DNA of 29,752 nt, taken from positions 1 through 29,752 of IMG/VR virus record IMGVR_UViG_3300046532_004466; one strand, 5' to 3'. This DNA comes from a virus. Numbering within the stretch: the stretch's first letter is position 1; each line of letters opens with the position of its first letter. Below are positions 1,660 to 29,752 of this stretch, one piece after another. The notes under the pieces were generated by a model that was not told the DNA's origin, did no database searches, and worked only from the letters and a program-made list of their open reading frames with translations. Made by a program: the position numbers and the translations under genes.

Positions 1660-2352
1660 TTATCCTTTTTGTTTTGCGCGGATGAGGTGTAATACCGCCT
1701 CCGCAAGTTCTTCTTTATTTCGACGTGCGATTACATCGTCGAAATAACTTTCCATGTGCTTTTCTTGTTCTAAACTCCCGCTATAGAGACCGGTTACTGT
1801 CTTTCCGCTATCCCTCCACAGCGAAGGCTTGAGTTCTACGTCGCAAATGCACGCATCAGTGTATGCAAACGCGAGATCCGACTTCAATAAGGCGTGCTTC
1901 GTCTTGGTCATGGATTGGGAGATTCCCTCCGTCCCATGCCAAGCGTCTATGGATTCCCAGCACCAATCTTCTAGCGGTACACCTTGGTTGTACCAGCAAT
2001 TTGAAGCCTCTCCGTATTTCCTTGTATATCCCGTCGCCACGAAGTGAAAATCAATGATCTTCTTTCGCGCTAAGTTATTGAATATAGCCATTATGGCGCA
2101 CCCATCCTCCATGTGGTTGCCGCCCATTGATCCAGACGTATCGAACACCACGTATACGGAAGCCCCGCCTGATCGCGCCGATGGACCACACAGATAGCCT
2201 TGCGTGTCGAGCTGGCAGATGGCTCGAACGTCGAGACTCTGTGCGGTCCACGAGTTATCGAACTCTTCTTCGTTCAAGCAAAGCGCTTTTCGGAAGCGCT
2301 GGGTGTTCTCGTCTACCCACGATCCGTTCTTATTCCAAAAACCCGCTGGCAT
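1660..2352 (-). CDS. VWA-domain protein (CobT C-terminal-like)
   Basis: 230 aa. A von Willebrand factor A fold is indicated by a hydrophobic strand ending in DTSGSMGG (residues 71-78), the DxSxS MIDAS motif that binds a divalent cation. A later acidic site in AYTDACICD (about 163-171) is where VWA domains usually place another metal-ligand Asp. VWA proteins paired with MoxR/CobS ATPases act as adaptors in ATP-driven remodelling or metal insertion. The ATG at 2352 overlaps the TAA of the ATPase gene (TAATG), with a GAGGGTAGGA purine stretch upstream. Only the C-terminal half of a typical CobT-type protein is present; the missing N-terminal domain seems to be the separate gene at 4280-5584. The substrate is unknown. 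Confidence 0.8.
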   Translation of the reverse strand: MPAGFWNKNGSWVDENTQRFRKALCLNEEEFDNSWTAQSLDVRAICQLDTQGYLCGPSARSGGASVYVVFDTSGSMGGNHMEDGCAIMAIFNNLARKKIIDFHFVATGYTRKYGEASNCWYNQGVPLEDWCWESIDAWHGTEGISQSMTKTKHALLKSDLAFAYTDACICDVELKPSLWRDSGKTVTGLYSGSLEQEKHMESYFDDVIARRNKEELAEAVLHLIRAKQKG

Positions 2353-3662
2353 TATCCTACCCTCGATAGGGCGTCTTTCCAATCGGCCGCCGCCATCGCG
2401 TCAAGGCCGAGTCCGTCGGCTTTCGCAACGCACTCTTCTTTTACCGCCTTCAATACGTTCTTCAGGTTATTGACGTGCTGTTTAATCGGTGTCCCGTGTC
2501 CATCCTTCGAGCAGTAACGATGCGCGTCATAGAGGTGATTGGATGCCTTGCTCTCGAATGCAACGAGGAAGTCGCGTGGTTCTCTCGTGCAAGGATTGAG
2601 GAGATTGCTGAACTCCCGATTCGACGGATACGTCTTCAGCTCGTTCTTCCTCGATGCCTTCAAGGCGTGGACGAAGAATCGCTTGGCGAAGTGGCACATC
2701 ATCTCCACTTCCAAATTCGTCCAGTCCAACTTGTATCGAGCTTGATGCTCGGCGCATTTGATTGCGAATATCTTTGCGATGTCGCCTTCCGTGCACTCGA
2801 TGGGAACGATTCTCCATCTGCTCTCCATCGCCTCATCCATCTCATTGATGAAGTAGCGAGATCCCCGATTGGTGGTGCCGGCGATGGCCAGCAGACGCAC
2901 GGGGATGTAAATAACCTCAGACGTCTTGTGACCGGTCGCTCCGATGGGCTTGCCAGTTTCAAGGCGGTAGTGAGGCTCAAGCCCATCGCCGGTATCGTAA
3001 TCCGTCGGCGACAGCATACTTTTGAATGAGTTCATGGTATCCTCGCGAAGAGCGAGCAACTCATCCAACATCCATGCCGTGGGTACGCGATTTTTGCTGA
3101 TATGGCGAAACACCGAAGAGGCAGTCTTATCAAGCCAACCCAACGCCGACGTTCCATCACCTTCGGGACAAGGATGCCCACGCATATCGGGAGTGCGCAA
3201 AGTGCTGTCACAATCCGTACGGAAGACGTTGGCTTTGCCATATACATTCATTAACCAACGTACGAGCTGGAATGTCTTTCCAGAACCTTTTCCTCCCTCG
3301 AACAGAAGGCACAGGAAAGTCGATCCCGGCGGTATCAGATCCGCACAAGCCTTTTCGAGCTTAGTCGCTCTCCCTTTCTTGGTCAGCGTCGCAAGGGCTG
3401 CGCCAATCGACACGCCGCTTGCCTTCGCCTCCTTGATGATCGCATCAGCGATGGCATTGGCATCCACTTCTCCGCCGCCGCCACCGCCGCTTGTCTTCGC
3501 CTCGACAGCCGCAGTTAATGTCACTATGTCCTTGGCGATTTCATCGAACCCGGCTTTTGTGCGCTCGGTGGTGTCGGCAAGTTTAATGCCTATATCCTTA
3601 ATATTATCGAGATCCTCCTTGAGAGCGGCTCGAAACGATTCAACTGGTATTTGTACTTCCAT
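2352..3662 (-). CDS. AAA+ ATPase, MoxR/CobS type
   Basis: 436 aa. Residues 1-60 are a probable coiled-coil helix (VES...TLTAAVEAKT), followed by a seven-residue glycine linker (59-65 region). The ATPase core has Walker A GGKGSGKT (123-130), Walker B AWMLDE (196-201, D200/E201), sensor 1 in AGTTN (N265) and a likely arginine finger in DEAMESRW (R282). This fits the MoxR/CobS/CbbQ branch of AAA+ proteins, which form hexameric rings and work with VWA proteins. The gene is translationally coupled to the VWA gene downstream, and AAGGA lies before the ATG. CobS-like ATPases occur in many phages with unclear roles. The N-terminal coiled coil with a glycine linker is an added feature and may mediate oligomerisation or partner binding. 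Confidence 0.88.
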   Translation of the reverse strand: MEVQIPVESFRAALKEDLDNIKDIGIKLADTTERTKAGFDEIAKDIVTLTAAVEAKTSGGGGGGEVDANAIADAIIKEAKASGVSIGAALATLTKKGRATKLEKACADLIPPGSTFLCLLFEGGKGSGKTFQLVRWLMNVYGKANVFRTDCDSTLRTPDMRGHPCPEGDGTSALGWLDKTASSVFRHISKNRVPTAWMLDELLALREDTMNSFKSMLSPTDYDTGDGLEPHYRLETGKPIGATGHKTSEVIYIPVRLLAIAGTTNRGSRYFINEMDEAMESRWRIVPIECTEGDIAKIFAIKCAEHQARYKLDWTNLEVEMMCHFAKRFFVHALKASRKNELKTYPSNREFSNLLNPCTREPRDFLVAFESKASNHLYDAHRYCSKDGHGTPIKQHVNNLKNVLKAVKEECVAKADGLGLDAMAAADWKDALSRVG

Positions 3663-9125: not shown

Positions 9126-9584
9126 ATGACGACTGAACAAGAAATTGCCGCGCGCATCATCAAACTAGATGCGGATTTAGATCAGGTTATCCAGTTCCGA
9201 GGTGAGAGACTCGCGGAGGAAATTGATACTATCGAGTTTTACGCTCCTCAGCAACAAGATGGCGTTTTGAAGAAGACCGCCAAGGTGGGAGCGGGCGTCG
9301 CCGCGGTCGGTACGGCTGGTCTCGTCGGGAAATCCATGTATGATGCCAAGTCCGATAGATTTGATAAAGCCGCGGAAGGCTTCAAAGGAAACGCCGATCA
9401 AAAGGCGGGAATGGCTAAAAGAGTCAAGGGCTGGAAGGGAAAAAGTTCCGCCGGTCGCTTCGGAAGCGCTGTTCAGTCGAATCTCAGGAAAGTGGATAAG
9501 GTTCCGGGATTAGGCAAAGCTGGCTTGGGTGGCAAGGCCGCCGGGCTTGTCGGCAAGGGAGTTAAGAGAATATTCGGCCGTTAA
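9126..9584 (+). CDS. Basic protein with Gly/Ala hydrophobic segment, 152 aa
   Basis: The N-terminal 34 residues are acidic and helical, followed by TIEFYA (35-40). Then a Gly/Ala-rich hydrophobic segment (VGAGVAAVGTAGLVGKSMYD, about 53-72) and a basic Gly/Lys-rich tail with several GKxG-type steps. The layout (EF motif, Lys, Gly/Ala segment, basic tail) recurs in other proteins of this region. There is no clear Shine-Dalgarno site; TTGACA lies 13 nt before the ATG. The stop TAA overlaps the stop of the opposing terminase gene in a shared TTAA. Confidence 0.6.
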   Translation: MTTEQEIAARIIKLDADLDQVIQFRGERLAEEIDTIEFYAPQQQDGVLKKTAKVGAGVAAVGTAGLVGKSMYDAKSDRFDKAAEGFKGNADQKAGMAKRVKGWKGKSSAGRFGSAVQSNLRKVDKVPGLGKAGLGGKAAGLVGKGVKRIFGR

Positions 9585-12229: not shown

Positions 12230-12493
12230 GCGGTATCGAATTGGAAAGTTATTTATCGAGATTTCACGGCGGTGGAACTTGATGAAGAGGAAGTTTTCTT
12301 TAAGAAGGAAGCTCGCAATATTTATTTATCTCAGGCCGTAGGGTCAAAGAATTACCAAAGATCCATCACCACTATCGAGGAAAGGTTGAGAGCAATCAAG
12401 GAAATTCGCAGAGAGCAGGGCAATCAGGATTATTATGAAGAAACTTACACGGATTTTTCTGGAGAAAACAGTCTTTGGAGTTCGCAACCATGA
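12227..12493 (+). CDS. Small protein before portal, possible gpW-like head-tail joiner, 88 aa
   Basis: Mostly helical and charged. The central part (YLSQAVGSKNYQRSITTIEE) followed by a long helix is reminiscent of gpW-type head-tail joining proteins, which lie in the lambda order just before the portal gene, as here. The similarity is weak and partly positional. It has AGGTG about 8 nt before the ATG. Its TGA overlaps the next start (ATGA). Confidence 0.45.
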   Translation: MAVSNWKVIYRDFTAVELDEEEVFFKKEARNIYLSQAVGSKNYQRSITTIEERLRAIKEIRREQGNQDYYEETYTDFSGENSLWSSQP

Positions 12494-13383
12494 GCCTAGA
12501 TAGCATATTCGAGTTCTCCAAGAAGGAGAAGGAGAAGAGAACGAAGCAAAAGATAGCGGGTCATACCGCAGCAGCAGCAGGTATGCTTGCTATGCCCGCC
12601 GCCCTTCCCTTTTTGAGGATAAAAGGACGCGATTTAGTACGCGGAGCTAAGGGTCTTACCGCGGGTCTAAAGGAACGGATGAAGAAAGCTCCCACGGGGG
12701 AATCGAAGATAGCAAAGAGAAGTCGCGTGGATGACGCCTCCACGAAGGCGGGTAGGGAAACGACGGAAGACAAAGGAAAGTTTATCGCGGATTATATGTC
12801 GGGAGCGGAGAAGGCGGGATCGAACGTAGTCACGAAACCATGGATGGATCGCAAAATCGCGAAGGCGGATAAATTTAGCTCCGATCATTATAAGAAATTC
12901 AGAGAAGGAAAGAAGACCGCCCACGATCATTGGAACTGGGAAAACACGAAAAGACGCCAAGACCAAGCGTGGGAAAAGGGTGTACACGCTGGCAAGATGA
13001 GGGATGTCGCGAATCAAAATCAAAACAACCCGGATCTTCAACAAAGAGCGAAGAAGGCCGAGACTAAACAGCGACTTGCCGAAAAAAGCAGGGATACTTT
13101 TGAAGATGGTCGAAAAGCATTCAAGGATCGAATGGAAAAGATCAGTAGCAAGCGAGACGGTGGGGGGTATTATGATTCAATAAGAAAGGCTTCCGCATCG
13201 AAAGATTTGACGGCGAATGAAAAGAAGTATATATCTTCTCTGCGAGTAGACAAGTCCGAGGTCGGCGAATCCTACGCGAAGCACGCCATGATAGCTCCGG
13301 GCATGGCCGCGGGTGGTGGCGCCGTGGCCGGACACGCATACTATAAGGATAGCAAAAATGGACGAAGAAAAAAGCGCAAATAA
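12490..13383 (+). CDS. Lys-rich protein with Gly/Ala segments at both ends, 297 aa
   Basis: Unrecognised. It begins MSLDSIFEFSKKEKEKR, with the EF motif at residues 6-10. A hydrophobic Ala-rich segment follows (TAAAAGMLAMPAALPFL, about 25-41), then ~210 residues of Lys/Asp/Arg-rich helical sequence. A second Gly/Ala segment (MIAPGMAAGGGAVAGHAYY, about 267-285) and an RRKKRK end complete it. The start is taken at 12490 because it overlaps the upstream stop (ATGA). The 3' end overlaps the portal start by 26 bp. It is a candidate internal or ejected virion protein; that is inference from charge, hydrophobic segments and neighbours. Confidence 0.65.
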   Translation: MSLDSIFEFSKKEKEKRTKQKIAGHTAAAAGMLAMPAALPFLRIKGRDLVRGAKGLTAGLKERMKKAPTGESKIAKRSRVDDASTKAGRETTEDKGKFIADYMSGAEKAGSNVVTKPWMDRKIAKADKFSSDHYKKFREGKKTAHDHWNWENTKRRQDQAWEKGVHAGKMRDVANQNQNNPDLQQRAKKAETKQRLAEKSRDTFEDGRKAFKDRMEKISSKRDGGGYYDSIRKASASKDLTANEKKYISSLRVDKSEVGESYAKHAMIAPGMAAGGGAVAGHAYYKDSKNGRRKKRK

Positions 13384-14971
13384 TCCTAACTGGCTCGATA
13401 AAACGTTGGGCTTTATTGCCCCGGAGTATCAACTGAAGCGCCAGTATTATAAGAATCTACTGGAGTTTGGCTATGATGGAGCGAAGCCTGATCGCTTTCG
13501 CGAAAGCGCTGGGGGATTGATGACGAATAGCGCCAGCGAAAGCTTAGCGAATCAAAGAGACCGACTGAAGCTTATGGCCGAGGCTCGCAATCTTTGTATG
13601 AATTATTCTTTCTTCAAGAGCATTCTCCTGAAGGAATCCATGTATGTCGCGGGATCTATGAGATATCAGTCGACCACCGGGAACCCGGAAGTAGACACCG
13701 AGTATGAGCGCTACTGGAAGGAGTGGACGGAAAGATGCGACTTAACGGGAAGGCATAGCTTTGTTCAGCTTATCCAGATGGCTCATATGAGCATGAGGCG
13801 AGATGGGGACTTTGGATTCGCGATGGTGACCCACGGAGATGATCTAGTCCTCCAATGCGTAGAAGCAGACAGGCTGGGGCATCCGCATAAGCACCATAAG
13901 GAAAACAACTATATAGGTGGAATCACTATAAACGAGCTAGGACAGCCTTTAACTTATAGAATATACAAAAGGACCATTCATGGGCAATACGAACAGCCAA
14001 GGGAAATCCCAGCCTCCAACTTCATTCACTACTTCGACCCCATGCGCACCGATCAATATCGGGGCATCACGGCATTTGAGACCGCCATACCGCACGCCCG
14101 CGATTTATATGAATTGCTGGCTATGGAGAAACAGGCGGTCAAATGGGGAGCGTCGCACGCGGGAGTCATAACCAAGGCTGATCCTGGTCCAGATAAGTGG
14201 ACTACGAAAAAAGACGCGGGGTCACTTGATCCCAAGAAGCTCGAAAAGACGATGCCCGGTAAAATCGTAAGACTCGCCCCCGGTGATGGGATTACGATGT
14301 TTCCCACGAATAGCAGACCTTCAGCCACATTTAATGGTTTCATTTCCACCCTAGTGCGGGAAATGGCCAATGGACTAAACCTCCCCTACGCATTCGTGTG
14401 GGATATGAGCCAGTTCGGTGGAGTCACGGCGAGGCTGGAAGTTCAGCAAGCCCAACGCGCCTTCGAGAGACATCAACGAATTTTACAGGAAAAGGTTCTG
14501 AATCCCATCAAGAATGCCGTAATCGCCAGAGCAATAGCTTTCAGGAAACTGCCGGCCGTTCCGAACTACAGGACGGGCAAGTGGCAGTTTAATTCGCAGA
14601 TTACCGCGGATCTTGGGAACGAGACTCAATCGAATCTGTCAATGCAACAGGCTGGCATGAAAACACATGAGGCTATCCTTGGTGAACTCGGCTTGGACTT
14701 TGAAGAAGAGACGGAAAAGATGGCGAAGGAAATTCGCTATATCGCCGATATGTCGCAAAAATATGGAGTTCCCGTCGAAATGATATCTCAGCGATTGGAG
14801 GGAGGCACTCAAATGCTCGCCAACTACCAGCAATTGATGCAACCCGAGCAGGGAGATCCCCTTGAACAAGCCCAAGGTCAAGCTGAAGTTCAAAAAACGA
14901 ACGCCGAGACTCAAAAGCTCATGGCTGATGCGAAAGCAATAGCGAAGGGGAAAAGTGAGCGCCGTAGGTAA
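13358..14971 (+). CDS. Portal protein, lambda gpB family
   Basis: 537 aa, the usual size for this family. Typical features in order: N-terminal helices, NLCMNYSFFKSIL, a beta-rich wing region, HYFDPMRTDQYRGITAFETA (family signature near the middle), and FGGVTARLEVQQAQRAFERH before the stem and clip helices. The C-terminus is Gln-rich and coiled. The dodecameric portal sits at one head vertex and is the channel for DNA. The start at 13358 has AAGGAT upstream and overlaps the preceding gene; an earlier in-frame start at 13313 is unlikely. Unlike lambda, the adjacent terminase large subunit is on the other strand. Confidence 0.9.
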   Translation: MDEEKSANNPNWLDKTLGFIAPEYQLKRQYYKNLLEFGYDGAKPDRFRESAGGLMTNSASESLANQRDRLKLMAEARNLCMNYSFFKSILLKESMYVAGSMRYQSTTGNPEVDTEYERYWKEWTERCDLTGRHSFVQLIQMAHMSMRRDGDFGFAMVTHGDDLVLQCVEADRLGHPHKHHKENNYIGGITINELGQPLTYRIYKRTIHGQYEQPREIPASNFIHYFDPMRTDQYRGITAFETAIPHARDLYELLAMEKQAVKWGASHAGVITKADPGPDKWTTKKDAGSLDPKKLEKTMPGKIVRLAPGDGITMFPTNSRPSATFNGFISTLVREMANGLNLPYAFVWDMSQFGGVTARLEVQQAQRAFERHQRILQEKVLNPIKNAVIARAIAFRKLPAVPNYRTGKWQFNSQITADLGNETQSNLSMQQAGMKTHEAILGELGLDFEEETEKMAKEIRYIADMSQKYGVPVEMISQRLEGGTQMLANYQQLMQPEQGDPLEQAQGQAEVQKTNAETQKLMADAKAIAKGKSERRR

Positions 14972-16466
14972 TTTTCTGCAAAATATAACGTCTCTTAGGC
15001 GTACCAGCTTTCATCGTAGAGCGAAGAAGTCCCTGAAGACTCCTACGGGTGAACACTATATAGATAAGCACTACAAGAAGAGTGATGCTCTTATAGATCA
15101 AGAAAACACGAGAGCAGCCGCTCTCGCCGCTTCGGCCGGAGGAGGTGCGGTAGTCGCTTCCGAGATAGGGAACGACGAACCATTTACCGAAAAGGAGATG
15201 GCGAATTATGCGAGCCTCGCTGGAGGAGCTGGGGGAGAAGCCGATATTGATGTAGAGGGCGTAAAGTTCAAGGATTACTGGGGTGGCGTGGATATGTCGA
15301 AAATTAAAGATGATCCCGCGGCTAGGGCGAGAACGAGATCATATTACGAGACCGCGAAGAAGAACCAAAGGGCGAAGGAATTGGCGGATAAAGACACCCC
15401 TTATGCGGAAAACAAGAAACAGGCGACGGCGCGGAAGCTTCAAGCCAAGGGAGACCCCGATGAAATCGCGCGCAATCAGGAATTTCAAAAAAATATACGA
15501 GCGAATTTGCAGAAAAACTTCGGGATACGCATTGGTGATGGGGATAAGATTCCACCGAAAGCCGATCTGCAAAAACAAATTGCGGCAAACAATGGCTTCA
15601 CTAAAGAAGATGGCTCGGGTGATTGGCGGGCAATGGAGAACGATCCAGATGAAGATGGCTCGCTCAAGGAAATCTCTAAAAAATTTAAGAAGGAGTATCC
15701 ACTGGGGCTAAAACAGGCGAATAAATCCCAAAACTTACTTGGCAACAACCCCGGAGTTAGCGGAACCCCCGCGCCGCGCCCCGGAGAGGAAACCGCAGGC
15801 GATAAAAGAAAAGCCGGTCGCGACAACGACGCACCCTTTGGGCGCTATCCGAAGGCGCATCGCCACGCGGGCAAGCCCATAAAGTCGGGGACGGCATGGA
15901 AAAAACTGCAAGAAGCGGCCAAGCCAGCCAAAGTCAAGCAGGGACCAATGCCACGAAAGGCAAAAACTCTTACATCGCAGGGGCCGCCAACGGAGACCGA
16001 TAATCAGGGAGCGATCGGTGCGTATGAGTCACAATATGCAATCCCAAGGGGGGAATTCGACAAGCATGTACCAGAACCCGAAAGGGCGAAAGCCATTCAG
16101 GAGGGAGCGAGCCTCCTTGCCTCCCATAAGAGAAGCGCTCAAAGCAGGTACAATCCCGATGTATCTAAGCTGTCCGCGAAGATTAGAATTATAGCCTTCG
16201 AGAAAGGGAAAAAGGATCGCAAGGCGGTTTACGCTGGTGCTGGAGTTGGTGGAGCTATAGGAACGGGTGCGGCATATGTGCGGCACAAGGACGTTAATCT
16301 TAGAGATAGGGTTTTGAAAAAGCGCGGGATGACACCGCGCAGTAGAGTGAAACTTAATACGGCCCTCTATGGTGGGGGCTTGTTGAGGATTTTAGGAGGA
16401 GCTGGAGCTGGAGCACTTGTAGGATACGGATATGACAAACTTAGAAAAAGAAAAGCTAGTAAGTAA
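14955..16466 (+). CDS. Large basic Lys-rich protein with C-terminal Gly-zipper segments, 503 aa
   Basis: Unrecognised. GTG start overlapping the portal end, with AAGGGG just upstream. An N-terminal basic region and a short Gly/Ala segment (ALAASAGGGAVVASEI, about 56-71) lead into a long polar Lys/Asp/Asn-rich middle. Then comes LSAKIRIIAFEKGKKDRK (406-423), directly before two Gly-rich hydrophobic segments (VYAGAGVGGAIGTGAAYV; LLRILGGAGAGALVGYGY) and an RKRK end. GxxxG spacing suggests helices that pack in membranes. Same architecture as its neighbours; a pilot or ejection protein is possible. Confidence 0.65.
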   Translation: MSAVGNFLQNITSLRRTSFHRRAKKSLKTPTGEHYIDKHYKKSDALIDQENTRAAALAASAGGGAVVASEIGNDEPFTEKEMANYASLAGGAGGEADIDVEGVKFKDYWGGVDMSKIKDDPAARARTRSYYETAKKNQRAKELADKDTPYAENKKQATARKLQAKGDPDEIARNQEFQKNIRANLQKNFGIRIGDGDKIPPKADLQKQIAANNGFTKEDGSGDWRAMENDPDEDGSLKEISKKFKKEYPLGLKQANKSQNLLGNNPGVSGTPAPRPGEETAGDKRKAGRDNDAPFGRYPKAHRHAGKPIKSGTAWKKLQEAAKPAKVKQGPMPRKAKTLTSQGPPTETDNQGAIGAYESQYAIPRGEFDKHVPEPERAKAIQEGASLLASHKRSAQSRYNPDVSKLSAKIRIIAFEKGKKDRKAVYAGAGVGGAIGTGAAYVRHKDVNLRDRVLKKRGMTPRSRVKLNTALYGGGLLRILGGAGAGALVGYGYDKLRKRKASK

Positions 16467-17352
16467 GGGACTGAATGAACTCGGGCTCAAGGTGGCTGAG
16501 TATGAGATGAGGCGTGGACCGAATCCATTCGAGATCGAGTTTGAGGACGTCAATCCCGCGCAAGCGCGCGCAGCCTTTAATAAAGTAAGGAAAAACGTAC
16601 GCACTGGGCGGAAGCTGGGTGACGCGGCTCATGATATTTATGAAGTCAAGAAGGGCGTGCGCACGAATAAGCGCAGAAAACGCTTTTGGCAAAAGCAAGC
16701 TTTCAAGGATACGGCGACCGCGGGAGCGCTCACGGCTTTACTCTATGGGGCTTACAAGGTGGGCAAAAGCAAGGTATTCTTGGGAAGCAAGGAAGAGAGC
16801 CGAGATTTCGTGAATAAGGTCGGGGGAATGTATCTCAATAATTTGGAAGAGAGAATCGAGCTAGACGTCGCGAAGGCATTGGGCTTGGACGATAAGAAGG
16901 AAAACTGGAGAACTTCACGACCCACGGGCTCTTCCGTACGCGTTCATATAGGAAAAAAGGCTAGAGATCGGCGCGACAAGAAGTGGTACGAAACTACGGA
17001 AGCCAAGAATAACTTTATAAAAGCCGGGATTGGCGGGACGCTGGCGGCTGGCATCGTTGCGGTCGCTGGGCTTAAGGGCAATTTATCCAAGGTGAAACGG
17101 CTCAAAGATCACGCGGAAAAGAGCCAGAGAAATAGGGCGTGGCACGCGGAAAAGACCCGAAAGTCGGCCGAGGCGGCGAAGAGGGCGACCAAGGAGAAGG
17201 AGGCCGCAATCACCTCCGAAAAGGAATTTCGTGATAAATTCAGAAAGGGCGGAAGACCTCGCAAGGATGTAATTGCGATTTCATCCGAAGGAAAAAGGAA
17301 ACCGAAAAAACCCGTCGGTGCTGACAACAGCGCCAAAGATCAAACAGCATGA
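16432..17352 (+). CDS. Lys-rich protein with two Gly/Ala hydrophobic segments, 306 aa
   Basis: Unrecognised. It contains PFEIEFEDV (32-40), an Arg/Lys-rich stretch (70-88), a first hydrophobic segment (TATAGALTALLYGAYKV, 94-110), a second related motif LEERIELDVAKAL (138-150), a second segment (IKAGIGGTLAAGIVAVAGL, 196-214), then a very basic helical tail. Overlaps the previous gene by 35 bp, with AGGA upstream. The duplicated order (acidic motif, basic stretch, Gly/Ala segment) suggests an internal repeat of the module seen once in neighbouring proteins. Confidence 0.62.
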   Translation: MTNLEKEKLVSKGLNELGLKVAEYEMRRGPNPFEIEFEDVNPAQARAAFNKVRKNVRTGRKLGDAAHDIYEVKKGVRTNKRRKRFWQKQAFKDTATAGALTALLYGAYKVGKSKVFLGSKEESRDFVNKVGGMYLNNLEERIELDVAKALGLDDKKENWRTSRPTGSSVRVHIGKKARDRRDKKWYETTEAKNNFIKAGIGGTLAAGIVAVAGLKGNLSKVKRLKDHAEKSQRNRAWHAEKTRKSAEAAKRATKEKEAAITSEKEFRDKFRKGGRPRKDVIAISSEGKRKPKKPVGADNSAKDQTA

Positions 17353-17810
17353 GCAAGCCGGGACCTAAAAAAGACTCCCGCAGACACGCGTATGGGGACG
17401 ATAAAAAGCGTAACGCCATGTTGACGGCTGGAGCGGTCGCCGGAGGGGGCGGGTTGTCCGCGGCGTATGTTTCGGCGGCCCATACGGGACAAAGAAAAGA
17501 CTACGCCGAAAAATCAATGGCGAAGGCGTACAACGAAGGCACGGCGAAAGCAAAAGCTTGGCAAGGTACTCCCGAGAACCCGGGCGATTACATTTCTGAC
17601 CCTGACTTCGTGGAGGGGAATACTAAGAATCCCCACTCCGGCGCAAAGTCGCAAAAGGAAGCCGAAAAGAAACTTTCAAAAAAATTAGATATGACGCTAA
17701 AGCGTCGTGACGGCGGCGCAAAGCCCAAATGGGAACCTAACTCCGGCCTCAGAAAGCTCGCATCGGGTGTGTTTGGTAGAGCAAGGGTGCCTTGGAGATT
17801 AAAACTATGA
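17349..17810 (+). CDS. Basic protein with Gly/Ala segment, 153 aa
   Basis: Unrecognised and the shortest gene of the basic group in this cluster. A basic N-terminus (KPGPKKDSRR...DDKKR) is followed by AMLTAGAVAGGGGLSAAYVS (23-42), one hydrophobic Gly-rich segment, then a polar Lys-rich tail. It lacks the EF motif. ATGA overlap with both neighbours (start with the 306-aa gene, stop with the protease gene) shows tight co-translation with the capsid maturation gene. Confidence 0.6.
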   Translation: MSKPGPKKDSRRHAYGDDKKRNAMLTAGAVAGGGGLSAAYVSAAHTGQRKDYAEKSMAKAYNEGTAKAKAWQGTPENPGDYISDPDFVEGNTKNPHSGAKSQKEAEKKLSKKLDMTLKRRDGGAKPKWEPNSGLRKLASGVFGRARVPWRLKL

Positions 17811-21545: not shown

Positions 21546-21929
21546 ATGGCTAAGTGCGCAAACACAAAAATGGGGACCTGCGAGTATCTCTTCGGGATAA
21601 CAGAAAACCGGCAGGACGTTACCTGCATTAAAGTTGAGTCCTTCAATATGGAGGAGACCGTAGAGTTCGAGTCCGAAGGAACTGATGACAATGGCAACGT
21701 AGCCGCCGTCGTGCGAGGACCTTCCAAGTTCACCGCTTCAATTTCGGGATACGTCGCAGCTGGATGTAATCTTCTGTCTCATTTGTGCGAGGTTGAAATT
21801 CCCAATAAAGCCGGCGGCAAGGACAAGTTCTTCGTTGAGAAATGGAGCATAAACGCCTCGAACAACGATTTCAAAAAGTGTGATTTAACCGCGGTTCGCT
21901 ATCCCGAAGCCACGATTTGCTGCCCATAA
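21546..21929 (+). CDS. Tail tube-like protein, Cys-rich, 127 aa
   Basis: Beta-rich, with eight cysteines (including C4, C12, C27 and a CC near the end), unusual for a cytoplasmically assembled tail protein. Pattern of ETVEFESEGTDDNG, then FTASISGYVAAG and FVEKWSINASNNDFKKCDLTA resembles small tail tube/tail proteins, and the gene lies where lambda V lies. Related to the next gene by the shared GY..G and F(F/W)V(E/D)K...SN.DF patterns. Start preceded by TTGACA and AGGTG. Confidence 0.6.
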   Translation: MAKCANTKMGTCEYLFGITENRQDVTCIKVESFNMEETVEFESEGTDDNGNVAAVVRGPSKFTASISGYVAAGCNLLSHLCEVEIPNKAGGKDKFFVEKWSINASNNDFKKCDLTAVRYPEATICCP

Positions 21930-21941
21930 GGAGGAATATTT

Positions 21942-22280
21942 ATGTCTAAAACATGTGGAGGATTTATTTTTGGAACTGATGGCGTCGCTGGCGTCGTCGT
22001 TGAGAGTCAGAGTGCCGATAGCGGTCCTCAGTACACGGCGATGGCGAAAGACGCTTGTGGCGTCACCAAGGCTATACAGCTCGGAAAGCCCACCGGCACG
22101 ATGACCGTGAGTGGATACTTTCTTGATGGCGCAACGACACCGAAAATCAATAGCCAAGTTTCACTTGAAGGAAGAAGCTTCTGGGTCGATAAGGTCACGG
22201 AGCAAGAATCCAATACTGACTTCGTTAAGGCTGAAATCACAGGCAAGTTCTGGGATGGCGTCGACACGAAGTGCGCATAG
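21942..22280 (+). CDS. Second tail tube-like protein, paralogue, 112 aa
   Basis: Beta-rich with three cysteines. VSGYFLDG, SLEGRSFWVDKVTEQESN and TDFVKAEITGKFWDG align by eye with the last half of the preceding protein, so the two are probably paralogues from duplication. One may form the tube and the other a decoration or initiator ring. A strong Shine-Dalgarno site (AAGGAGG, 7 nt from the ATG) suggests high expression, so this could be the main tube protein. Confidence 0.6.
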   Translation: MSKTCGGFIFGTDGVAGVVVESQSADSGPQYTAMAKDACGVTKAIQLGKPTGTMTVSGYFLDGATTPKINSQVSLEGRSFWVDKVTEQESNTDFVKAEITGKFWDGVDTKCA

Positions 22281-22283
22281 TAT

Positions 22284-22883
22284 GTGGATATCGACGAAAA
22301 ATTCGCCGAAGCTTGGGTAAATTCCGAGCACAAGGTCTTTGGCTATAAGCTAAAGCCTTTTTCTTGCTGGCATAAGTTTTTATTGGGCGTCTACGATAGC
22401 CCATTTATATCGCAGGACACCAGAGATCCCGAGGTCGAGGATATAATAAACGCGGTTTTAATCTTTCGCCTATCATATCCTCAAGTTCCCAAGCCCAGCA
22501 GAACTTGGATGAAGATTCGCTTCTTTCTGAGAAGCTGGAAAATAGAGCAAGAAGCTCTAAATCTACGACTATATTTCGAGGACTTTCTCGCCTTTCCGGA
22601 GTTCTGGAAGAAAGAAGAAGATAAGACGAATCGCGGTGGTCCACCGGATGTTCTTTCTACTACTACGGGCTTACTGTCCTTGGGTATCCCCGAAAAAGAC
22701 GCATGGGATATGCCGATTGGGAAGGCGTTCTGGTATGCCTCCGCGTACGCCTCGCAACTAGGGGCTGATTTAGATTTCATTACCGCCAAAGAACGCGCAA
22801 TGGAAGCCAATATTGACAACATAAAGGAGGATATGGAAGCGGCTAGAAAAAAGTTCATGGCGGAGCAAGTGGGAAATGGCTAA
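22284..22883 (+). CDS. Tail assembly chaperone (gpG-like)
   Basis: 199 aa, helical, directly before the tape measure gene, the standard place of the tail assembly chaperone. N-terminal Trp/Phe-rich region (HKVFGYKLKPFSCWHKFLLG) and DPEVEDIINAVLIFRL resemble lambda-type tail chaperones. GTG start without a good Shine-Dalgarno site; an overlapping out-of-frame ATG lies at 22282. A slippery A-AAA-AAG (22847-22853) is in frame near the 3' end, but a -1 shift adds only about a dozen residues. It overlaps the tape measure start. Confidence 0.65.
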   Translation: MDIDEKFAEAWVNSEHKVFGYKLKPFSCWHKFLLGVYDSPFISQDTRDPEVEDIINAVLIFRLSYPQVPKPSRTWMKIRFFLRSWKIEQEALNLRLYFEDFLAFPEFWKKEEDKTNRGGPPDVLSTTTGLLSLGIPEKDAWDMPIGKAFWYASAYASQLGADLDFITAKERAMEANIDNIKEDMEAARKKFMAEQVGNG

Positions 22884-25800
22884 TATACCAGTAAACATGA
22901 CCTTCACGGCCCGAGGGCTGGAGGCGATTAAAGGGGCATTCAATAATCTTATTGAGCCCGCTGCTGTATTCGCGACTACGGGGAGCAAGGCTGGCGCGGC
23001 TTGGGCCGGGATAAAGACGATTCTGATTACTAAAGTTCTCGGCCCTCTATCCCTTTTGTCTGGGGCGGTCGCCGGAGTGATCGGGGGATTCAAGTTATTG
23101 TTTGGGCAGTCTCAGCTTCTAGCGAAGGGCATGGAGCAAGTGCGCGACATGCAATACACGACTACGCAGTTCGCTCCGCTTCTCAATGGAATAGAGAATG
23201 CCCGCAAGCATGTGGAAGAGCTGTATAAATTCGCGTCGGAAACTCCATTTCAAATTGGGGATATCGCCGGAGCGTCCAAGCAACTGGAAATTCTCACGAG
23301 GGGTGCCTTGGGGGGCGCTCAAAACTTAAAGCTGATTGCAGATGCAGCTGCGGTATCAGGGCAGGGAATGCAATCAGTCGGGATGTGGGTCGCGAGGCTT
23401 TATGACGGCTTGCAATCTGGTCGCCCCGTTGGTGAAGCCATGGCCCGACTACAGGAAATGGGGCTGGTCACGGGACTTACTCGAAAGAAGATAGAGGAAG
23501 GAACGGCTGCTGGAAAGAGCTTCACGGAGATGTGGGAGCTAATGGAAAAGGAGTTCTCCAGGAATGAGGGGGCGTCTCAAAAGCTTTCGCAAACTCTAGG
23601 CGGGCTTGAGTCTACCCTTATAGACGTTAAATCGAAATTTGAAGGCCAGTTCGCGGAAAACTTTCTTGAAGGAGAAATGGAAGCCACTAAACGCTCCATT
23701 CTTATGTTTCAAACCATGGAAAAGCCCGTGGCGAGGATTGGTTTCTGGTTTTCCAAGGTAAGCAACGCATGGGAGAAATTCAAAACCGGGCTACTTTCGG
23801 GGTTTGGGGCGTTTGAGGGAGCGGGAGCTAGTATGGGCAAGCTCGTAGATGCGTTTGTCATACTTGGAGCGGCCATCATGGCGGCTCAGTTCTCAACGGC
23901 TATAGTCGGCACTTCGCAATTAGCCGCTTCTTCCGTTCGGGCGGCTATGGCATCTCAGTACCATGGCCTCATGGAGATATATCGCACGGCTGGGCTGAAG
24001 GCGGCTACGGCGTGGTTTTGGAAGCAATCTTTTGCCACGAAAGTATCAACGGTCGCCCAAGGACTATTCAATGGAGTTACATGGGTTGGAACTAAGGCAT
24101 TGGGCATATTTACGGGGGCCTTAAAATCGGCGTGGGCGGCAATGATAGCGAATCCAGCGATCGCTGTTATCGCGGCGTTAGCGGCTATTATTATGGTTAT
24201 GTATCGCCATAGTGAGGCGATGGAGGAGGCCACGAAGCGCTCAAACGATATGGCGGATGGCGCGCGGAAGACGGCCGATGCGTTAAGGGATGAGGCGGAC
24301 GCCATCAGCACTCTTGAGGGTAAGTTGTCGTTAGCACAAAAAAGCATAACTAAGGTCAAGGAGGCACAGGAGGCTTTATCTAAAATTAAATCAGCGAATC
24401 TTTCCATCGCGCACGAAGGTTTCGGCGCAGGGAATTCCTCGGCGATGGATTCATTTACGGGGGGCTTATGGAATAAGACCGAAAGAGACGCCGGGGCAAT
24501 CGAAGAAGGAGGAGCGGAGAACGCCTATCAGACGCAACTGGAGGTCGCTAAAGAAATTCTTAATATTTCCGAGTCTGATATAGCTTTAAATGATGTGAAG
24601 TTGGCTCAAATAGAAGAGCAGGTAAAACTCTCCCAGAAGTTGAAAGACATTCAGTTTGGCAGAAGCATGGAGGAGGCCTCAGCGGCGGGCAAGATTCTCA
24701 TTTTAGAGGGAAAAAAGGAAGAGCTCGCCAGAAGGATAGCGGCTATTGAAACAACAAGAGGCTCTCAGGCCAATATGGCCGGGGCAACGAAAAAATCCCA
24801 AATAGAGGAACAGAGGGCGAAGCTGGACAGGCTAGTGAAGCAAAAGCAAGTTGAGGAAATGAAGGCTGGCGACAAGGCAGATCAAGACGCGGGCGCTGGT
24901 GGATTCACGGAAGGCGCGAAGACTGTTCTTATCGACTATAATCCGCTTCTGACGGGCATAGGTTATATGACGGATCTCGTGGGGATCACGGATGATGCCG
25001 GGAAAGCAATAAGCGGATTAGGGGACGAAATGTTCGGAATCGAGTCAGTAAATAAAGCGCTTACGGATAACGCCGCAGCGACTAAGGCGTTTGAGGATAC
25101 GCTGAATGACGCCGAAAAAACTGATCTACAAAATATACGCTCCGCGCTTGAGGATTCACTTGGGCTCTTAACGGAGCTGAATACGGAGGGTGGAAATATG
25201 ACGTTGGAGTCATTGGAGGGCGTAAGTCTGGAGACTCTTACGTCGGCGCTTCAATCGGGTCGCATATACGCGAACGAGGCCGCCGATGCCATAAACGATT
25301 TGCGAGAACCCGCGAGTTTATTGGAAACGCTAGGTTCCCAAATAGAGAACGTAGATTTCACCGATATCAAGTCCGTTGATGATCTTTCCGATCCCATCAA
25401 GGAGACCATAGCGCAGCTTGGCGAGCTTGGGCTGACCTTTGCGAATCTAGCTTCCGTAGAAGTGCTTCAGGCAACGATCAATAAAACGTCCGAACTGGGA
25501 ACGGTGCTGGGAGAGCTAGGGATAAACGCCGATGAACTCGGATTATCGGATTTTCAAGATGCCATAGCTGATATAAAGAAGGAAACGACGACCGTGAAAT
25601 CCGTAACGAGAACCGCGACGAAGGCGGATGTTGGCAAAGGTGGAGCAGCGTTCGGTAAGGGAATTGCAGAAGGGGAAGAGTTTACTGTTCAGATCGACGT
25701 CGAGACCGGCGAATCCGCTTCCAACGCCTTCAAGGAGATGAGTAATGAGCAGAAATCATTGGTGACAGAGAAAGTTGTGCTACTGCAGAAGGAAAGGAAG

Positions 25801-27135
25801 CAATACTCTGCTCTCACCCAGCAAGCCGCGGAACTACAGAATCAGCAGAATGAATTGCTGGAAAACCTACAAATGACCGTGAAGATGAGGGAGCTGGATA
25901 TAGCCCTTCAGGATAAACTACTACAGCTTGGCATAAAAACTTGGGAGATAGAAAAGAAGAAGAACGAAGCGACCATGGAGCAACTGGAGGCGAAGAAAGC
26001 GCTTCTGCAGGAGGACATGAAAAATCGCGATGAGACGCAATCAAAGGAGGAGATTGGTCGCAAATTGGGGCTGGCTGAAAAATCCGAGAATGAATTCTCA
26101 ACGGAGGAGCAGTTTAGAAAAAACGCGAGCGTGCTGAAAACAAAAGACAACAAGGGCAATGATCGTGATTTCACCGAAGAAGAAATAGATCAAGCGTGGG
26201 ATGCTAGGCAGAAAGCGTGGCAAGAGACCCAGCAAAGCGCTGACGTCGGCAAAAAAATGCGCAAAGTCGATAAAGTCGATAAAGCTATGGGGATTCAAGG
26301 CGTGGGCGGCAAGGTCGAGACGGGTGCCACTTTCGCGGATGATAAAGATCAAGCGGCGTATATAGCTCTAGCGAAAGAACTCGCGAATGCCGCGGATCTA
26401 TCCGATAAGGAGCTAGGGAAGGTTAATGATCAAATAAAAGGTCTAAACCACACGATGGATGAAAACGCCATTAAGATAAAACGCATCGTGGAGCAGCATA
26501 AGCATCTTATAAATATGGCAAAAATGGATCTGAGCATTGACATATCAATACGAGATGATCAATTCGGCGCGGCCCACGACGCCATGCGCGAAATGAACGC
26601 CTTGGAGGAAGAGAATATTCAGTTGCTCAGAATGCGAGCGCTACTAGGTCAGGGCATCGCGAAGGACGTCGCGGAGACCATAGTTTTTAGCGAGCAACTA
26701 CAACGCATTGATGAAAAGCGTAACAACATAACGAAAATGCTAAAGGCGGCGAATAAGACGCAGGAGACGTCCGCGCTCGCCATGCAAGCCAGAGGTGGCG
26801 ATCAAGACGCTAGGAGAAAACTGGAGTCTATCGAAAACAAGGATTTCTTTAAGGATCAACTCAAGGCCGGAGTAGATGCGGGCATGGGGAAAGAGGAAAA
26901 CATTCAACAGGCTCAACAATTACTAAACGCAAAGCTCATGGATGAAGTCGGGGAGACGAAAATCACGGCCGACTCCATGCGTAAGATTGGGGCCGGCGGA
27001 TACGCCGATTCCACAGATCCAATGAAAAGACTCGCCGAAAAACAACTCGCCGCCCAGCAGGCGGTATTGCCAATATTAAGGGAAATGCTGAAAGCACAGC
27101 AAGTACCCGCTCAACCCGCTCAACTACAACCGTAA
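22876..27135 (+). CDS. Tape measure protein, 1419 aa
   Basis: Longest gene in the window, and in the expected place. An N-terminal tape-measure domain (YTTTQFAPLLNG..., ASETPFQIGDIAGASKQLE; about 85-250) with three hydrophobic segments, at about 55-75, 325-342 and 425-440, precedes a long helical coiled-coil body rich in Glu, Lys, Gln and Ala. At about 0.15 nm per residue the tail would be roughly 210 nm long, indicating a siphovirus-like tail. No lysozyme or peptidase motif was noticed. Overlaps the chaperone gene by 8 bp, and its TAA overlaps the next ATG. Confidence 0.9.
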   Translation: MANIPVNMTFTARGLEAIKGAFNNLIEPAAVFATTGSKAGAAWAGIKTILITKVLGPLSLLSGAVAGVIGGFKLLFGQSQLLAKGMEQVRDMQYTTTQFAPLLNGIENARKHVEELYKFASETPFQIGDIAGASKQLEILTRGALGGAQNLKLIADAAAVSGQGMQSVGMWVARLYDGLQSGRPVGEAMARLQEMGLVTGLTRKKIEEGTAAGKSFTEMWELMEKEFSRNEGASQKLSQTLGGLESTLIDVKSKFEGQFAENFLEGEMEATKRSILMFQTMEKPVARIGFWFSKVSNAWEKFKTGLLSGFGAFEGAGASMGKLVDAFVILGAAIMAAQFSTAIVGTSQLAASSVRAAMASQYHGLMEIYRTAGLKAATAWFWKQSFATKVSTVAQGLFNGVTWVGTKALGIFTGALKSAWAAMIANPAIAVIAALAAIIMVMYRHSEAMEEATKRSNDMADGARKTADALRDEADAISTLEGKLSLAQKSITKVKEAQEALSKIKSANLSIAHEGFGAGNSSAMDSFTGGLWNKTERDAGAIEEGGAENAYQTQLEVAKEILNISESDIALNDVKLAQIEEQVKLSQKLKDIQFGRSMEEASAAGKILILEGKKEELARRIAAIETTRGSQANMAGATKKSQIEEQRAKLDRLVKQKQVEEMKAGDKADQDAGAGGFTEGAKTVLIDYNPLLTGIGYMTDLVGITDDAGKAISGLGDEMFGIESVNKALTDNAAATKAFEDTLNDAEKTDLQNIRSALEDSLGLLTELNTEGGNMTLESLEGVSLETLTSALQSGRIYANEAADAINDLREPASLLETLGSQIENVDFTDIKSVDDLSDPIKETIAQLGELGLTFANLASVEVLQATINKTSELGTVLGELGINADELGLSDFQDAIADIKKETTTVKSVTRTATKADVGKGGAAFGKGIAEGEEFTVQIDVETGESASNAFKEMSNEQKSLVTEKVVLLQKERKQYSALTQQAAELQNQQNELLENLQMTVKMRELDIALQDKLLQLGIKTWEIEKKKNEATMEQLEAKKALLQEDMKNRDETQSKEEIGRKLGLAEKSENEFSTEEQFRKNASVLKTKDNKGNDRDFTEEEIDQAWDARQKAWQETQQSADVGKKMRKVDKVDKAMGIQGVGGKVETGATFADDKDQAAYIALAKELANAADLSDKELGKVNDQIKGLNHTMDENAIKIKRIVEQHKHLINMAKMDLSIDISIRDDQFGAAHDAMREMNALEEENIQLLRMRALLGQGIAKDVAETIVFSEQLQRIDEKRNNITKMLKAANKTQETSALAMQARGGDQDARRKLESIENKDFFKDQLKAGVDAGMGKEENIQQAQQLLNAKLMDEVGETKITADSMRKIGAGGYADSTDPMKRLAEKQLAAQQAVLPILREMLKAQQVPAQPAQLQP

Positions 27136-27998: not shown

Positions 27999-29752
27999 GT
28001 GAATGATTATGTACAAAAGCTAACTCGCGTTAGTGGTGGGGATAGCCTCACTGGCACTTTTACGGCATCTCGCCTGAATGCGATTCAGGATGCGATAAAG
28101 GCGTTGGCGCGTGGGGCGAATATTCAAGCAGGAGATGGAATTTCCGTGCAGAAAGTCGCGGGGAACGTAAATATATCGAAAGTTCAAGATCCCGAAAGCG
28201 GGGCGAAGCATAGGCCGATAACTGAATATACATATTTCGCCAAGGAGCTGGACAAGATACATATGACGACGGGGTGTGGGGGCTTAAGCACCGTGGAAGG
28301 CCTGGAGATTCCGCTCAATAGGGTGGATAACAACTGGTGCAAAGGGGGAGTCACCCCACTCAACTTACTTGAGGAGTGCAACAATACTTATGCCTATGGC
28401 GGCGAAATGTTTGAAAGGGACCCCGGGAAGTCATACGGATATTTCATGGAGCCCGGGGTTTATGAAATAACGATAGATCAAACCTCAATACTCAAGCTCG
28501 ACGATTGCGACCAGAAGGAAAACTATCATAACGTCACGATAGGCAACTTTTGCATGGTTGGAAACAAAGGCGCGTCCCCCCATCCCGGGTGCAATCATTC
28601 ATGGACGGGGCAATTGCTCCCCCAATCGGTGATGCTCCATACGATCAATACGTCGAAAAGGCTTCCCCACGATTTCAAGACGAATATCGTAATGGAGATA
28701 GAGCATGGGACGACCGAAAAAGCGGTTATAGCGGGCAAGGCGTGGATTGAGCCAGAGACTCAAGCTTGCGACCTCCCCCCCAAGCCTGATCCGACTTGCC
28801 CGATTTTAGTTTGCTGTTCCTCTACTGACATTTCCTTTGATATCGAAATTCCATGCGTAGTCGTGGGGTCTACCACTACTTCTTGCGTGATACCGCTTCC
28901 CACGTATTCCCTGCATTCCTCATCCACTAATTGTTTATACGATACCTATACGCTGTCCTCCTCGTCAGAAGACTGCTATACATCTACGTATTCGTTGTCC
29001 GAAGGTTCCACTGCCTGCGTTATCACGGGAACTAGTCACGCCGCCACGATCAACGTTCCAGCTTGGTCACTTACCACCAGCTCAAGCGATTGCATACACG
29101 ATACGTATACGCTCACTTCTATCTCCTCCGATTGCACGTACTCTACGTACTCGCTATCCGAAGGTTCCCAGTCTTGCGTTATCTTGGGAGCAACTCAAGC
29201 TGCCACGATCAACATCCCTACATATTCGCTTATCTCTACTTCTAGCGATTGCACGTACTCCACATACTCGCTCTCCGAAGGTTCCACTTCCTGCGTTATC
29301 ACGGGAGCAACTCAAGCTGCCACGATCAACATCCCTACTTGGTCACTCACCACTAGCTCTCTCTCTTGCGTCTTTCAAACGCAGACGATCACAAGTACAG
29401 ATGTGGAGATGTCCTGTGGCGGCGCACAAGTGAATATAACCGGCCATCTCGAAGTGCCATATAACGATTATGATCTTGAGTCGACATCCACAGTGCAGTC
29501 GTTCGGGGATTGGGAAATAACGGAATCTTCATCCAGCTGCGTATATCCCACATACAGCCTTCAAGCCACCTCCGGCACTTGTGTATATGACACGTATACG
29601 CTCGCCTCGATCTCTTCCGATTGCGCGTACTCCACGTATACGCTCGCTTCAATCTCCTCCGACTGCACGTACTCCACATACTCGCTATCCGAAGGTTCCC
29701 AGTCTTGCGTTATCTTGGGAGCGAACACCACCGCTGCGATTAACGTTCCGAC
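27999..29752 (+). CDS. Repetitive tail fibre/tip protein, C-terminus beyond the window
   Basis: Open for 584 codons to the window edge. GTG start immediately after the previous stop. The N-terminus (residues ~19-46, TGTFTASRLNAIQDAIKALA then RGANIQAGDGI) resembles tail-tip and fibre attachment regions. Residues ~50-275 are a Cys/Gly-containing globular part. From about residue 302 it is Ser/Thr/Tyr/Cys repeats (see repeat entry), interrupted by a non-repeat stretch at about 460-510. Probably a host-contact or tail-tip structure; no enzymatic motif is seen. Confidence 0.8.
   Translation, partial: MNDYVQKLTRVSGGDSLTGTFTASRLNAIQDAIKALARGANIQAGDGISVQKVAGNVNISKVQDPESGAKHRPITEYTYFAKELDKIHMTTGCGGLSTVEGLEIPLNRVDNNWCKGGVTPLNLLEECNNTYAYGGEMFERDPGKSYGYFMEPGVYEITIDQTSILKLDDCDQKENYHNVTIGNFCMVGNKGASPHPGCNHSWTGQLLPQSVMLHTINTSKRLPHDFKTNIVMEIEHGTTEKAVIAGKAWIEPETQACDLPPKPDPTCPILVCCSSTDISFDIEIPCVVVGSTTTSCVIPLPTYSLHSSSTNCLYDTYTLSSSSEDCYTSTYSLSEGSTACVITGTSHAATINVPAWSLTTSSSDCIHDTYTLTSISSDCTYSTYSLSEGSQSCVILGATQAATINIPTYSLISTSSDCTYSTYSLSEGSTSCVITGATQAATINIPTWSLTTSSLSCVFQTQTITSTDVEMSCGGAQVNITGHLEVPYNDYDLESTSTVQSFGDWEITESSSSCVYPTYSLQATSGTCVYDTYTLASISSDCAYSTYTLASISSDCTYSTYSLSEGSQSCVILGANTTAAINVP
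28902..29752 (+). repeat. 14-residue TYSL/Cys repeat array in tail gene
   Basis: Protein consensus T-Y/W-S/T-L-x-x-x-S-S-x-C-x-Y-S/D. At least twelve short units are visible, some carrying a longer unit with SEGSxSCVI then ATQAATINIP. One cysteine falls at the same place in each unit. At the DNA level 29121-29191 and 29652-29722 (71 bp) differ at only three positions, all synonymous. The array continues past the window edge. Confidence 0.85.

What the first reader, a model, noticed from the sequence alone, without database searches (positions are those of the whole stretch)
28902..29752. Cysteine-ladder 14-residue repeat in a tail gene
Short repeats with Tyr, Ser, Leu and a single Cys in register, with alternating strand-like TYSL and turn-like SSDC pieces, look like a beta-solenoid with stacked cysteines. 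Insect antifreeze proteins and some disulfide-ladder solenoids have similar arrays, but I know of no phage fibre described this way. It may make a disulfide-stiffened spike or bind a metal or host surface.
Basis: partly seen in the sequence, partly recalled or inferred. Interest (0 to 1): 0.62.

Follow-up and report, generated by a model that had tools for sequence, protein, structure and literature searches.

The report
Cysteine-studded repeat shaft of tail fibre
The last gene of this uncultivated virus fragment encodes a probable tail-tip fibre whose shaft is built from 14- and 25-residue repeats, each with one cysteine in register; because the virus's other outer tail proteins are also rich in cysteine, the whole tail may be stiffened by sulphur bridges.

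Summary
The repeat is real. Gene 27999-29752 (+) is cut by the contig end at 584 residues. It holds nine 14-residue units (C-x-Y-[SD]-T-Y-[ST]-L-x-x-x-S-x-x; C, T, Y, L and S invariant) and three 25-residue units (CVITGATQAATINIPTYSLxxSSSD). Nine neighbouring Cys pairs lie 14 apart, against at most five in 10,000 shuffles. The last 322 residues contain no Lys or Arg. The gene follows a tape-measure gene and one more tail gene. Five related uncultivated viruses keep this order and the ~250-residue N-terminal domain, but fill the middle with other material: Ser/Tyr/Cys repeats, I-P repeats or collagen-like stretches. This is the plan of a modular tail fibre. The exact Cys array occurs only here; short Cys-YSL pieces occur in one relative. 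In all six viruses the presumed tube proteins and the preceding tail gene keep invariant cysteines, while the tape measure has none. I infer a beta-rich shaft in a tail cross-linked by disulfides after release, as shown for phage Milano. No known fibre family matches.

The parts
27999..29752 (+). Tail-fibre candidate gene, GTG start, 584 aa visible, 3' end missing (contig ends inside the repeats)
   Evidence: order TMP - gp287 - fibre conserved in five relatives
27999..28740 (+). Conserved N-terminal part (residues 1-247), presumed tail attachment; contains the strongest motif RLNAIQDAIKALARG
   Evidence: 35% identity over 247 residues to L041/L045; found in 6 further records with E 1e-104 to 1e-119
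28740..28883 (+). Pro/Cys-rich link with a first IEIP strand motif; Lys/Arg-free stretch begins at residue 263 (nt 28785)
28884..29752 (+). Repeat array: nine 14-aa and three 25-aa units plus a cut last unit, one Cys at the head of each
28932..29015 (+). 14-aa units C312, C326
29016..29090 (+). 25-aa unit C340 (CVITGTSHAATINVPAWSLTTSSSD)
29091..29174 (+). 14-aa units C365, C379
29175..29249 (+). 25-aa unit C393
29250..29291 (+). 14-aa unit C418
29292..29366 (+). 25-aa unit C432
29415..29537 (+). Interruption without 14-aa units (C473 to S513)
29538..29705 (+). 14-aa units C514, C528, C542, C556
29706..29752 (+). Start of a further long unit (CVILGANTTAAINVP...), cut by the contig end
27135..27998 (+). 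Tail gene 'gp287', 10 Cys; C9 invariant in 8/8 homologues
22876..27135 (+). Tape-measure protein, 1419 aa, 0 Cys
   Evidence: PHROG tape measure E 8.9e-5; annotated tape measure of Cellulophaga phage phi39:1, 28% identity, E 1e-6; Cys count
21546..21929 (+). Presumed tail-tube protein 1, 8 Cys in 127 aa; C81 and C125 invariant in 6/6, C12 and C112 present or absent together
   Evidence: tube role inferred from position and size only
21942..22280 (+). Presumed tail-tube protein 2, paralogue of protein 1; C5 and C111 invariant in 6/6
   Evidence: hhalign probability 99.2

Best explanation
This is the tail-tip fibre of a virus with a long tail that is probably non-contractile. The conserved N-terminal ~250 residues anchor it to the tail tip. 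The repeat array is a variable-length, beta-rich shaft that carries the C-terminal end (missing here) towards the host. Each unit contributes a short strand (TYSL, or INIPTYSL in the long units) and a Ser-rich turn ending in Cys, so cysteines recur at regular steps along the shaft. They stay reduced during assembly in the cell. After lysis they oxidise, between chains or neighbouring units, and stiffen the shaft as part of a tail-wide disulfide cross-linking that also involves the tube proteins and gp287. Shown: the repeat, gene order, conserved N-terminus with a replaced middle, and the cysteine distribution. Inferred: fibre role, beta structure, oligomer and disulfides.
For: Gene order MCP - small tail genes - two paralogous tube-like genes - TMP - gp287 - this gene is conserved in five relatives; TMP identified by PHROG and by an annotated phage TMP. 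N-terminus conserved (E 2e-34), middle replaced by other repeats or collagen-like stretches, as in modular fibres; L047 carries a weak CBM5/12 match in the same region (below Pfam cut-off). The [VI]x[VI]P strand motif is enriched in the middle of the family members (0 to 4 of 500 shuffles in six of seven proteins, 31 of 500 in the truncated L047). L046 has similar CVNSYSLSGSQQSCKISVNVPYYNL and CYASSFSLSSASSC pieces; the Cys-[YF]xL motif is enriched in its second ORF. Outer tail proteins: 48 Cys in 1110 residues; head and inner proteins: 8 in 4501 (Fisher p 2e-26), still 3e-15 without the repeat gene. Cysteines invariant across the group: two in each tube-like protein (6/6) and C9 of gp287 (8/8); C12/C112 of tube 1 come and go together. 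Composition (net charge about -26, no Lys/Arg in 322 residues, mean hydropathy +0.10) lies on the folded side of the charge-hydropathy line (my arithmetic). Precedent: all tail components of phage Milano, including tube, tailspike and short tail fibre, are disulfide-linked (PMC10811340).
Against: No structure model is trustworthy (pLDDT 36 and 28). The exact Cys array is confined to this contig, so its function has no comparative test. The C-terminal end is missing. No direct evidence for disulfides. The exterior/interior grouping was made after seeing the cysteine counts, and the tube assignment rests on position and size.
Confidence: 0.5

Rival explanations
1. A single-chain beta-solenoid with a ladder of stacked, unbonded cysteines in its core. 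The disulfides are not needed; cysteine is simply a small hydrophobic core residue.
For: In the unit, hydrophobic positions 1, 3, 6 and 8 (sometimes 11) are spaced as in short-coil solenoids. Lys and Arg are absent, as stacking would favour. Successive in-register cysteines in parallel coils would sit about 4.8 A apart, close for a disulfide (general knowledge).
Against: AlphaFold2 on the repeats alone gave pLDDT 28 and no solenoid. Unit length changes 14/14/25 and the array is interrupted. Cys is not kept in the corresponding repeats of relatives.
Confidence: 0.2
2. An intertwined trimeric shaft (triple beta-spiral or triple-stranded beta-helix type) in which the three cysteines of each layer face the axis and form a triad that stays reduced or binds a metal ion.
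For: Phage fibres are usually trimers (general knowledge); one short strand plus one turn per unit; a single Cys per unit suits three-fold symmetry.
Against: No invariant Gly or Pro turn position in the 14-mers; no accompanying His; no oligomer prediction could be run; no PDB relative.
Confidence: 0.15
3. A largely disordered, Ser/Thr-rich, flexible spacer (perhaps glycosylated) whose cysteines have no regular geometry.
For: 37% Ser+Thr; AlphaFold2 confidence very low.
Against: Strict register of C, T, Y, L and S; alternating Y-x-L and I-x-I-P strand patterns; charge-hydropathy on the folded side; shallow alignments alone would give low pLDDT.
Confidence: 0.12
4. An ice- or crystal-binding repeat surface as in antifreeze and ice-nucleation proteins, using the in-register T-Y-[ST] row.
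For: T-Y-T or T-Y-S occurs in all nine 14-mers; ice-nucleation repeats are modelled as solenoids with outward Thr and Tyr arrays (PMC9418140 abstract).
Against: Only 4 of 9 units have TxT; units are interrupted by 25-mers; a tail gene has no evident need for ice binding.
Confidence: 0.03

Closest known systems
Disulfide-cross-linked tail of Agrobacterium phage Milano (and relative 7-7-1); PMC10811340, PMC12796354
   Same: Elevated cysteine in tail structural proteins, including tube and receptor-binding proteins; in Milano these form interchain disulfides
   Different: Milano has a contractile sheath, and 7-7-1 also cross-links its capsid; here no sheath-sized gene lies between MCP and TMP, the MCP is Cys-poor, and the fibre carries a 14-residue Cys array not described for Milano. 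No sequence relation was seen (no phage record matched the tail proteins)
Tail-associated BACON tandem repeats of crAss-like phages (PMC6949934)
   Same: Tandem repeats in phage tail proteins that evolve by duplication and exchange
   Different: BACON is a full domain; these units are 14 and 25 residues, with no Pfam match
Collagen-like phage fibres (PMC3368898)
   Same: Low-complexity repeat shaft; relatives L048 and L050 have Gly-rich, collagen-like stretches in the same place
   Different: The window's shaft has no Gly-X-Y repeat
Insect antifreeze (Tenebrio type) and cysteine-ladder beta-solenoids
   Same: Short Cys/Thr/Ser repeats in register
   Different: One Cys per 14 or 25 residues rather than two per 12; unequal units; no confident solenoid model

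Membership tests
Cysteine-ladder beta-solenoid | Constant coil length stacking residues in register | tested here: not met
   14-, 25- and 16-residue units plus a 41-residue gap between Cys; runs of up to four 14-mers are regular, and long coils with loops cannot be excluded
Cysteine-ladder beta-solenoid | Solenoid fold | tested here: inconclusive
   AlphaFold2 pLDDT 35.7 and 28.4
Insect antifreeze protein (Tenebrio type) | 12-residue TCTxSxxCxxAx repeat with two Cys | tested here: not met
   Unit is C-x-Y-[SD]-T-Y-[ST]-L-x-x-x-S-x-x; family consensus from own knowledge
Triple beta-spiral fibre shaft | About 15-residue repeat with conserved Gly/Pro turn position | tested here: not met
   14-mers have no invariant Gly or Pro; Gly at position 11 in 4 of 9; family consensus from own knowledge
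Triple beta-spiral fibre shaft | Trimer | not testable with these tools
   Only single-chain prediction offered
Disulfide-linked tail (Milano kind) | Cysteine enriched in tail structural proteins | tested here: met
   48/1110 vs 8/4501 residues; Milano structural proteins 2.1%
Disulfide-linked tail (Milano kind) | Conserved cysteines in the tube protein | tested here: met
   C81 and C125 of tube-like 1, C5 and C111 of tube-like 2 in 6/6 viruses; tube role inferred from position
Disulfide-linked tail (Milano kind) | Interchain disulfides in the virion | not testable with these tools
   Needs virions
Disulfide-linked tail (Milano kind) | Contractile sheath | tested here: not met
   No sheath-sized gene between MCP and TMP in the window or L041
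BACON tandem repeat | BACON domain match | tested here: not met
   No Pfam family up to E 1
Collagen-like fibre | Gly-X-Y repeat | tested here: not met
   Absent in the window protein; Gly-rich collagen-like blocks present in relatives L048 and L050

The most novel reading that the evidence does not exclude
This uncultivated virus group has a wholly disulfide-cross-linked, non-contractile tail (tube, tip and fibre). In this member the fibre shaft has evolved a regular column of cysteines, one per 14- or 25-residue unit, that pair between chains after release and make a covalently locked, Lys/Arg-free (trypsin-proof) rod.
Probability: 0.25. Interest if true: 0.72.

Novelty: new variant of a known kind. 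Interest (0 to 1): 0.5.

Why it matters
Disulfide-locked phage tails are known (in the papers I could read) from one Agrobacterium phage group. A second, apparently unrelated group with Cys-rich tails and a fibre built on a Cys-bearing short repeat would suggest that oxidative locking outside the cell is a recurring way to harden tails. The family is also a clear case of one fibre changing its shaft material (Cys/Ser/Tyr repeats, I-P repeats, collagen-like) while keeping its attachment end.

Tried and rejected
A DNA-pattern scan for the repeat used a wrong spacing (13 residues); its loci L003-L039 are chance matches and are not used. The corrected scan gave one chance match, L040. Direct relatives of the whole protein: none in viral contigs, phages or plasmids. 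Two scans of bacterial and archaeal genomes found none, so the host is unknown. PHROG 14673 matches the last 55 residues (E 9.8e-6; 6.7e-7 on the repeats alone), but the reversed repeat sequence also matches unrelated families down to 4e-4; I treat it as probably compositional, unresolved. Foldseek on the low-confidence model is meaningless and not used. An RNA-level role was rejected for the part tested: folding z-score -0.16. A profile of the 39-residue unit finds only the window protein among the relatives.

Full report
What is there. The window is a whole virus record of 29752 bases, probably a fragment. Its last gene starts at GTG 27999 and is open at the contig end; 584 residues are visible. 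From residue 296 on, cysteines recur at fixed steps: nine units of 14 residues and three of 25, with one interruption at residues 473-513. In the 14-mers Cys1, Thr5, Tyr6, Leu8 and Ser12 are invariant in nine of nine; the 25-mers read CVITGATQAATINIPTYSLxxSSSD. Nine neighbouring Cys pairs are exactly 14 apart; the best of 10,000 shuffles had five. The copies differ most at third codon positions. The last 322 residues contain no Lys or Arg, while the next longest such run in the window's other listed proteins is 66. The contig ends inside the repeats, probably because assembly stops there (inference).

What gene it is. It follows a tape-measure gene (PHROG tape measure; annotated tape measure of Cellulophaga phage phi39:1) and a 287-residue tail gene. 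Searches started from that gene and from the N-terminus found five related uncultivated viruses: L041/L045, L042/L046/L051, L043/L047, L048/L053 (with a partial near-copy L049/L052), and L050. They share the order MCP (about 61-67% identity where held), small tail genes, two paralogous tube-like genes, TMP, gp287-type gene and fibre. A sixth record, L002, is close (91% MCP) but ends before the tail. Of the proteins compared with deposited phages, only the portal and the TMP N-terminus found a match at the thresholds used.

What varies. The N-terminal ~250 residues are conserved (35% identity). Then the proteins diverge. L046 and L047 have Ser/Tyr/Cys and I-x-V-P-x-Y strands, with a weak CBM5/12 match in L047. 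L045 has Ile/Val-Pro/Glu repeats. L048 and L050 have collagen-like Gly-rich blocks flanked by I-P-x-x-Y strands. A C-terminal piece ending in RPAG...SEKR is seen in L045 and L048, with looser likeness in L046 and L050; in the window it would lie beyond the contig end. The strand motif [VI]x[VI]P is enriched across the family, whereas 14-residue Cys spacing is confined to the window and Cys-x(2-4)-[YF]xL is enriched only in the window and the second ORF of L046. The Cys array is therefore a local elaboration of a family-wide strand-repeat shaft.

Cysteines in the rest of the tail. In the window the outer tail proteins have 48 Cys in 1110 residues; twelve head or inner proteins have 8 in 4501, and the 1419-residue tape measure has none. 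The two tube-like proteins each keep two cysteines in six of six viruses and gp287 keeps one in eight of eight homologues; C12 and C112 of the first tube-like protein are present or absent together. The grouping into outer and inner was made after looking at the counts, and the tube role rests on gene position, size and paralogy, so this is suggestive rather than proven.

Structure. AlphaFold2 gave pLDDT 35.7 for the whole protein with six sequences and 28.4 for the repeats with self-alignment. Strands are drawn mainly in the 25-residue units. This neither confirms nor excludes a solenoid: alignments were shallow and only a single chain could be modelled. Composition (net charge about -26 over 324 residues, mean hydropathy +0.10) lies on the folded side of the charge-hydropathy boundary.

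Mechanism. I favour a tail-tip fibre with a beta-rich shaft whose regularly placed cysteines oxidise after lysis and lock chains or units together, as part of a disulfide-stabilised tail. Phage Milano shows this happens in nature: its tube, sheath, baseplate, spike and short fibre are disulfide-linked. The fibre role is likely (about 0.8); oxidation in this tail is about 0.45; a single-chain solenoid about 0.2.

Novelty. The fibre family has no match in the libraries searched, and the Cys-bearing 14-residue unit is new to me, but modular repeat fibres and disulfide tails are both known kinds. I rate it a new variant of a known kind.

Noticed in passing
21546-22280: Two tandem paralogous small tail proteins (presumed tube proteins) with invariant cysteines across six viruses, including a pair (C12/C112) that comes and goes together; possible disulfide-linked tube.
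   Followed up: partly
L046:7989-12681: In this relative the fibre is split into two adjacent ORFs (870 and 692 aa); the second has its own GGAGG ribosome-binding site, so it looks like a real two-gene fibre rather than a frameshift.
   Followed up: partly
L051:2581-3485: The major capsid gene of this contig is broken by a frameshift near 3190, perhaps an assembly error.
   Followed up: no
L048:8001-13151 and L050:8001-14132: Fibre homologues of 1716 and 2043 aa with long Gly-rich, collagen-like blocks; these two viruses also carry two copies of the gp287-type gene.
   Followed up: partly
9126-9584, 12475-13383, 14955-16466, 16432-17352, 17349-17810: Several very basic Gly/Ala/Lys-rich proteins with a hydrophobic stretch and no cysteine, interleaved with the portal gene; candidates for internal or ejection proteins.
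   Followed up: no
1660-3662 (-): A protein with a DTSGSMGG motif (von Willebrand A-like) beside a P-loop ATPase-like protein, resembling the CobT/CobS pairs seen in phages; no Pfam match.
   Followed up: no
L041:13443-17999: A run of glycosyltransferase-like genes downstream of the fibre in one relative.
   Followed up: no
28785-29752: 322 residues without a single Lys or Arg (chance about 1e-22 at the window's average composition), which would make this part trypsin-proof.
   Followed up: partly
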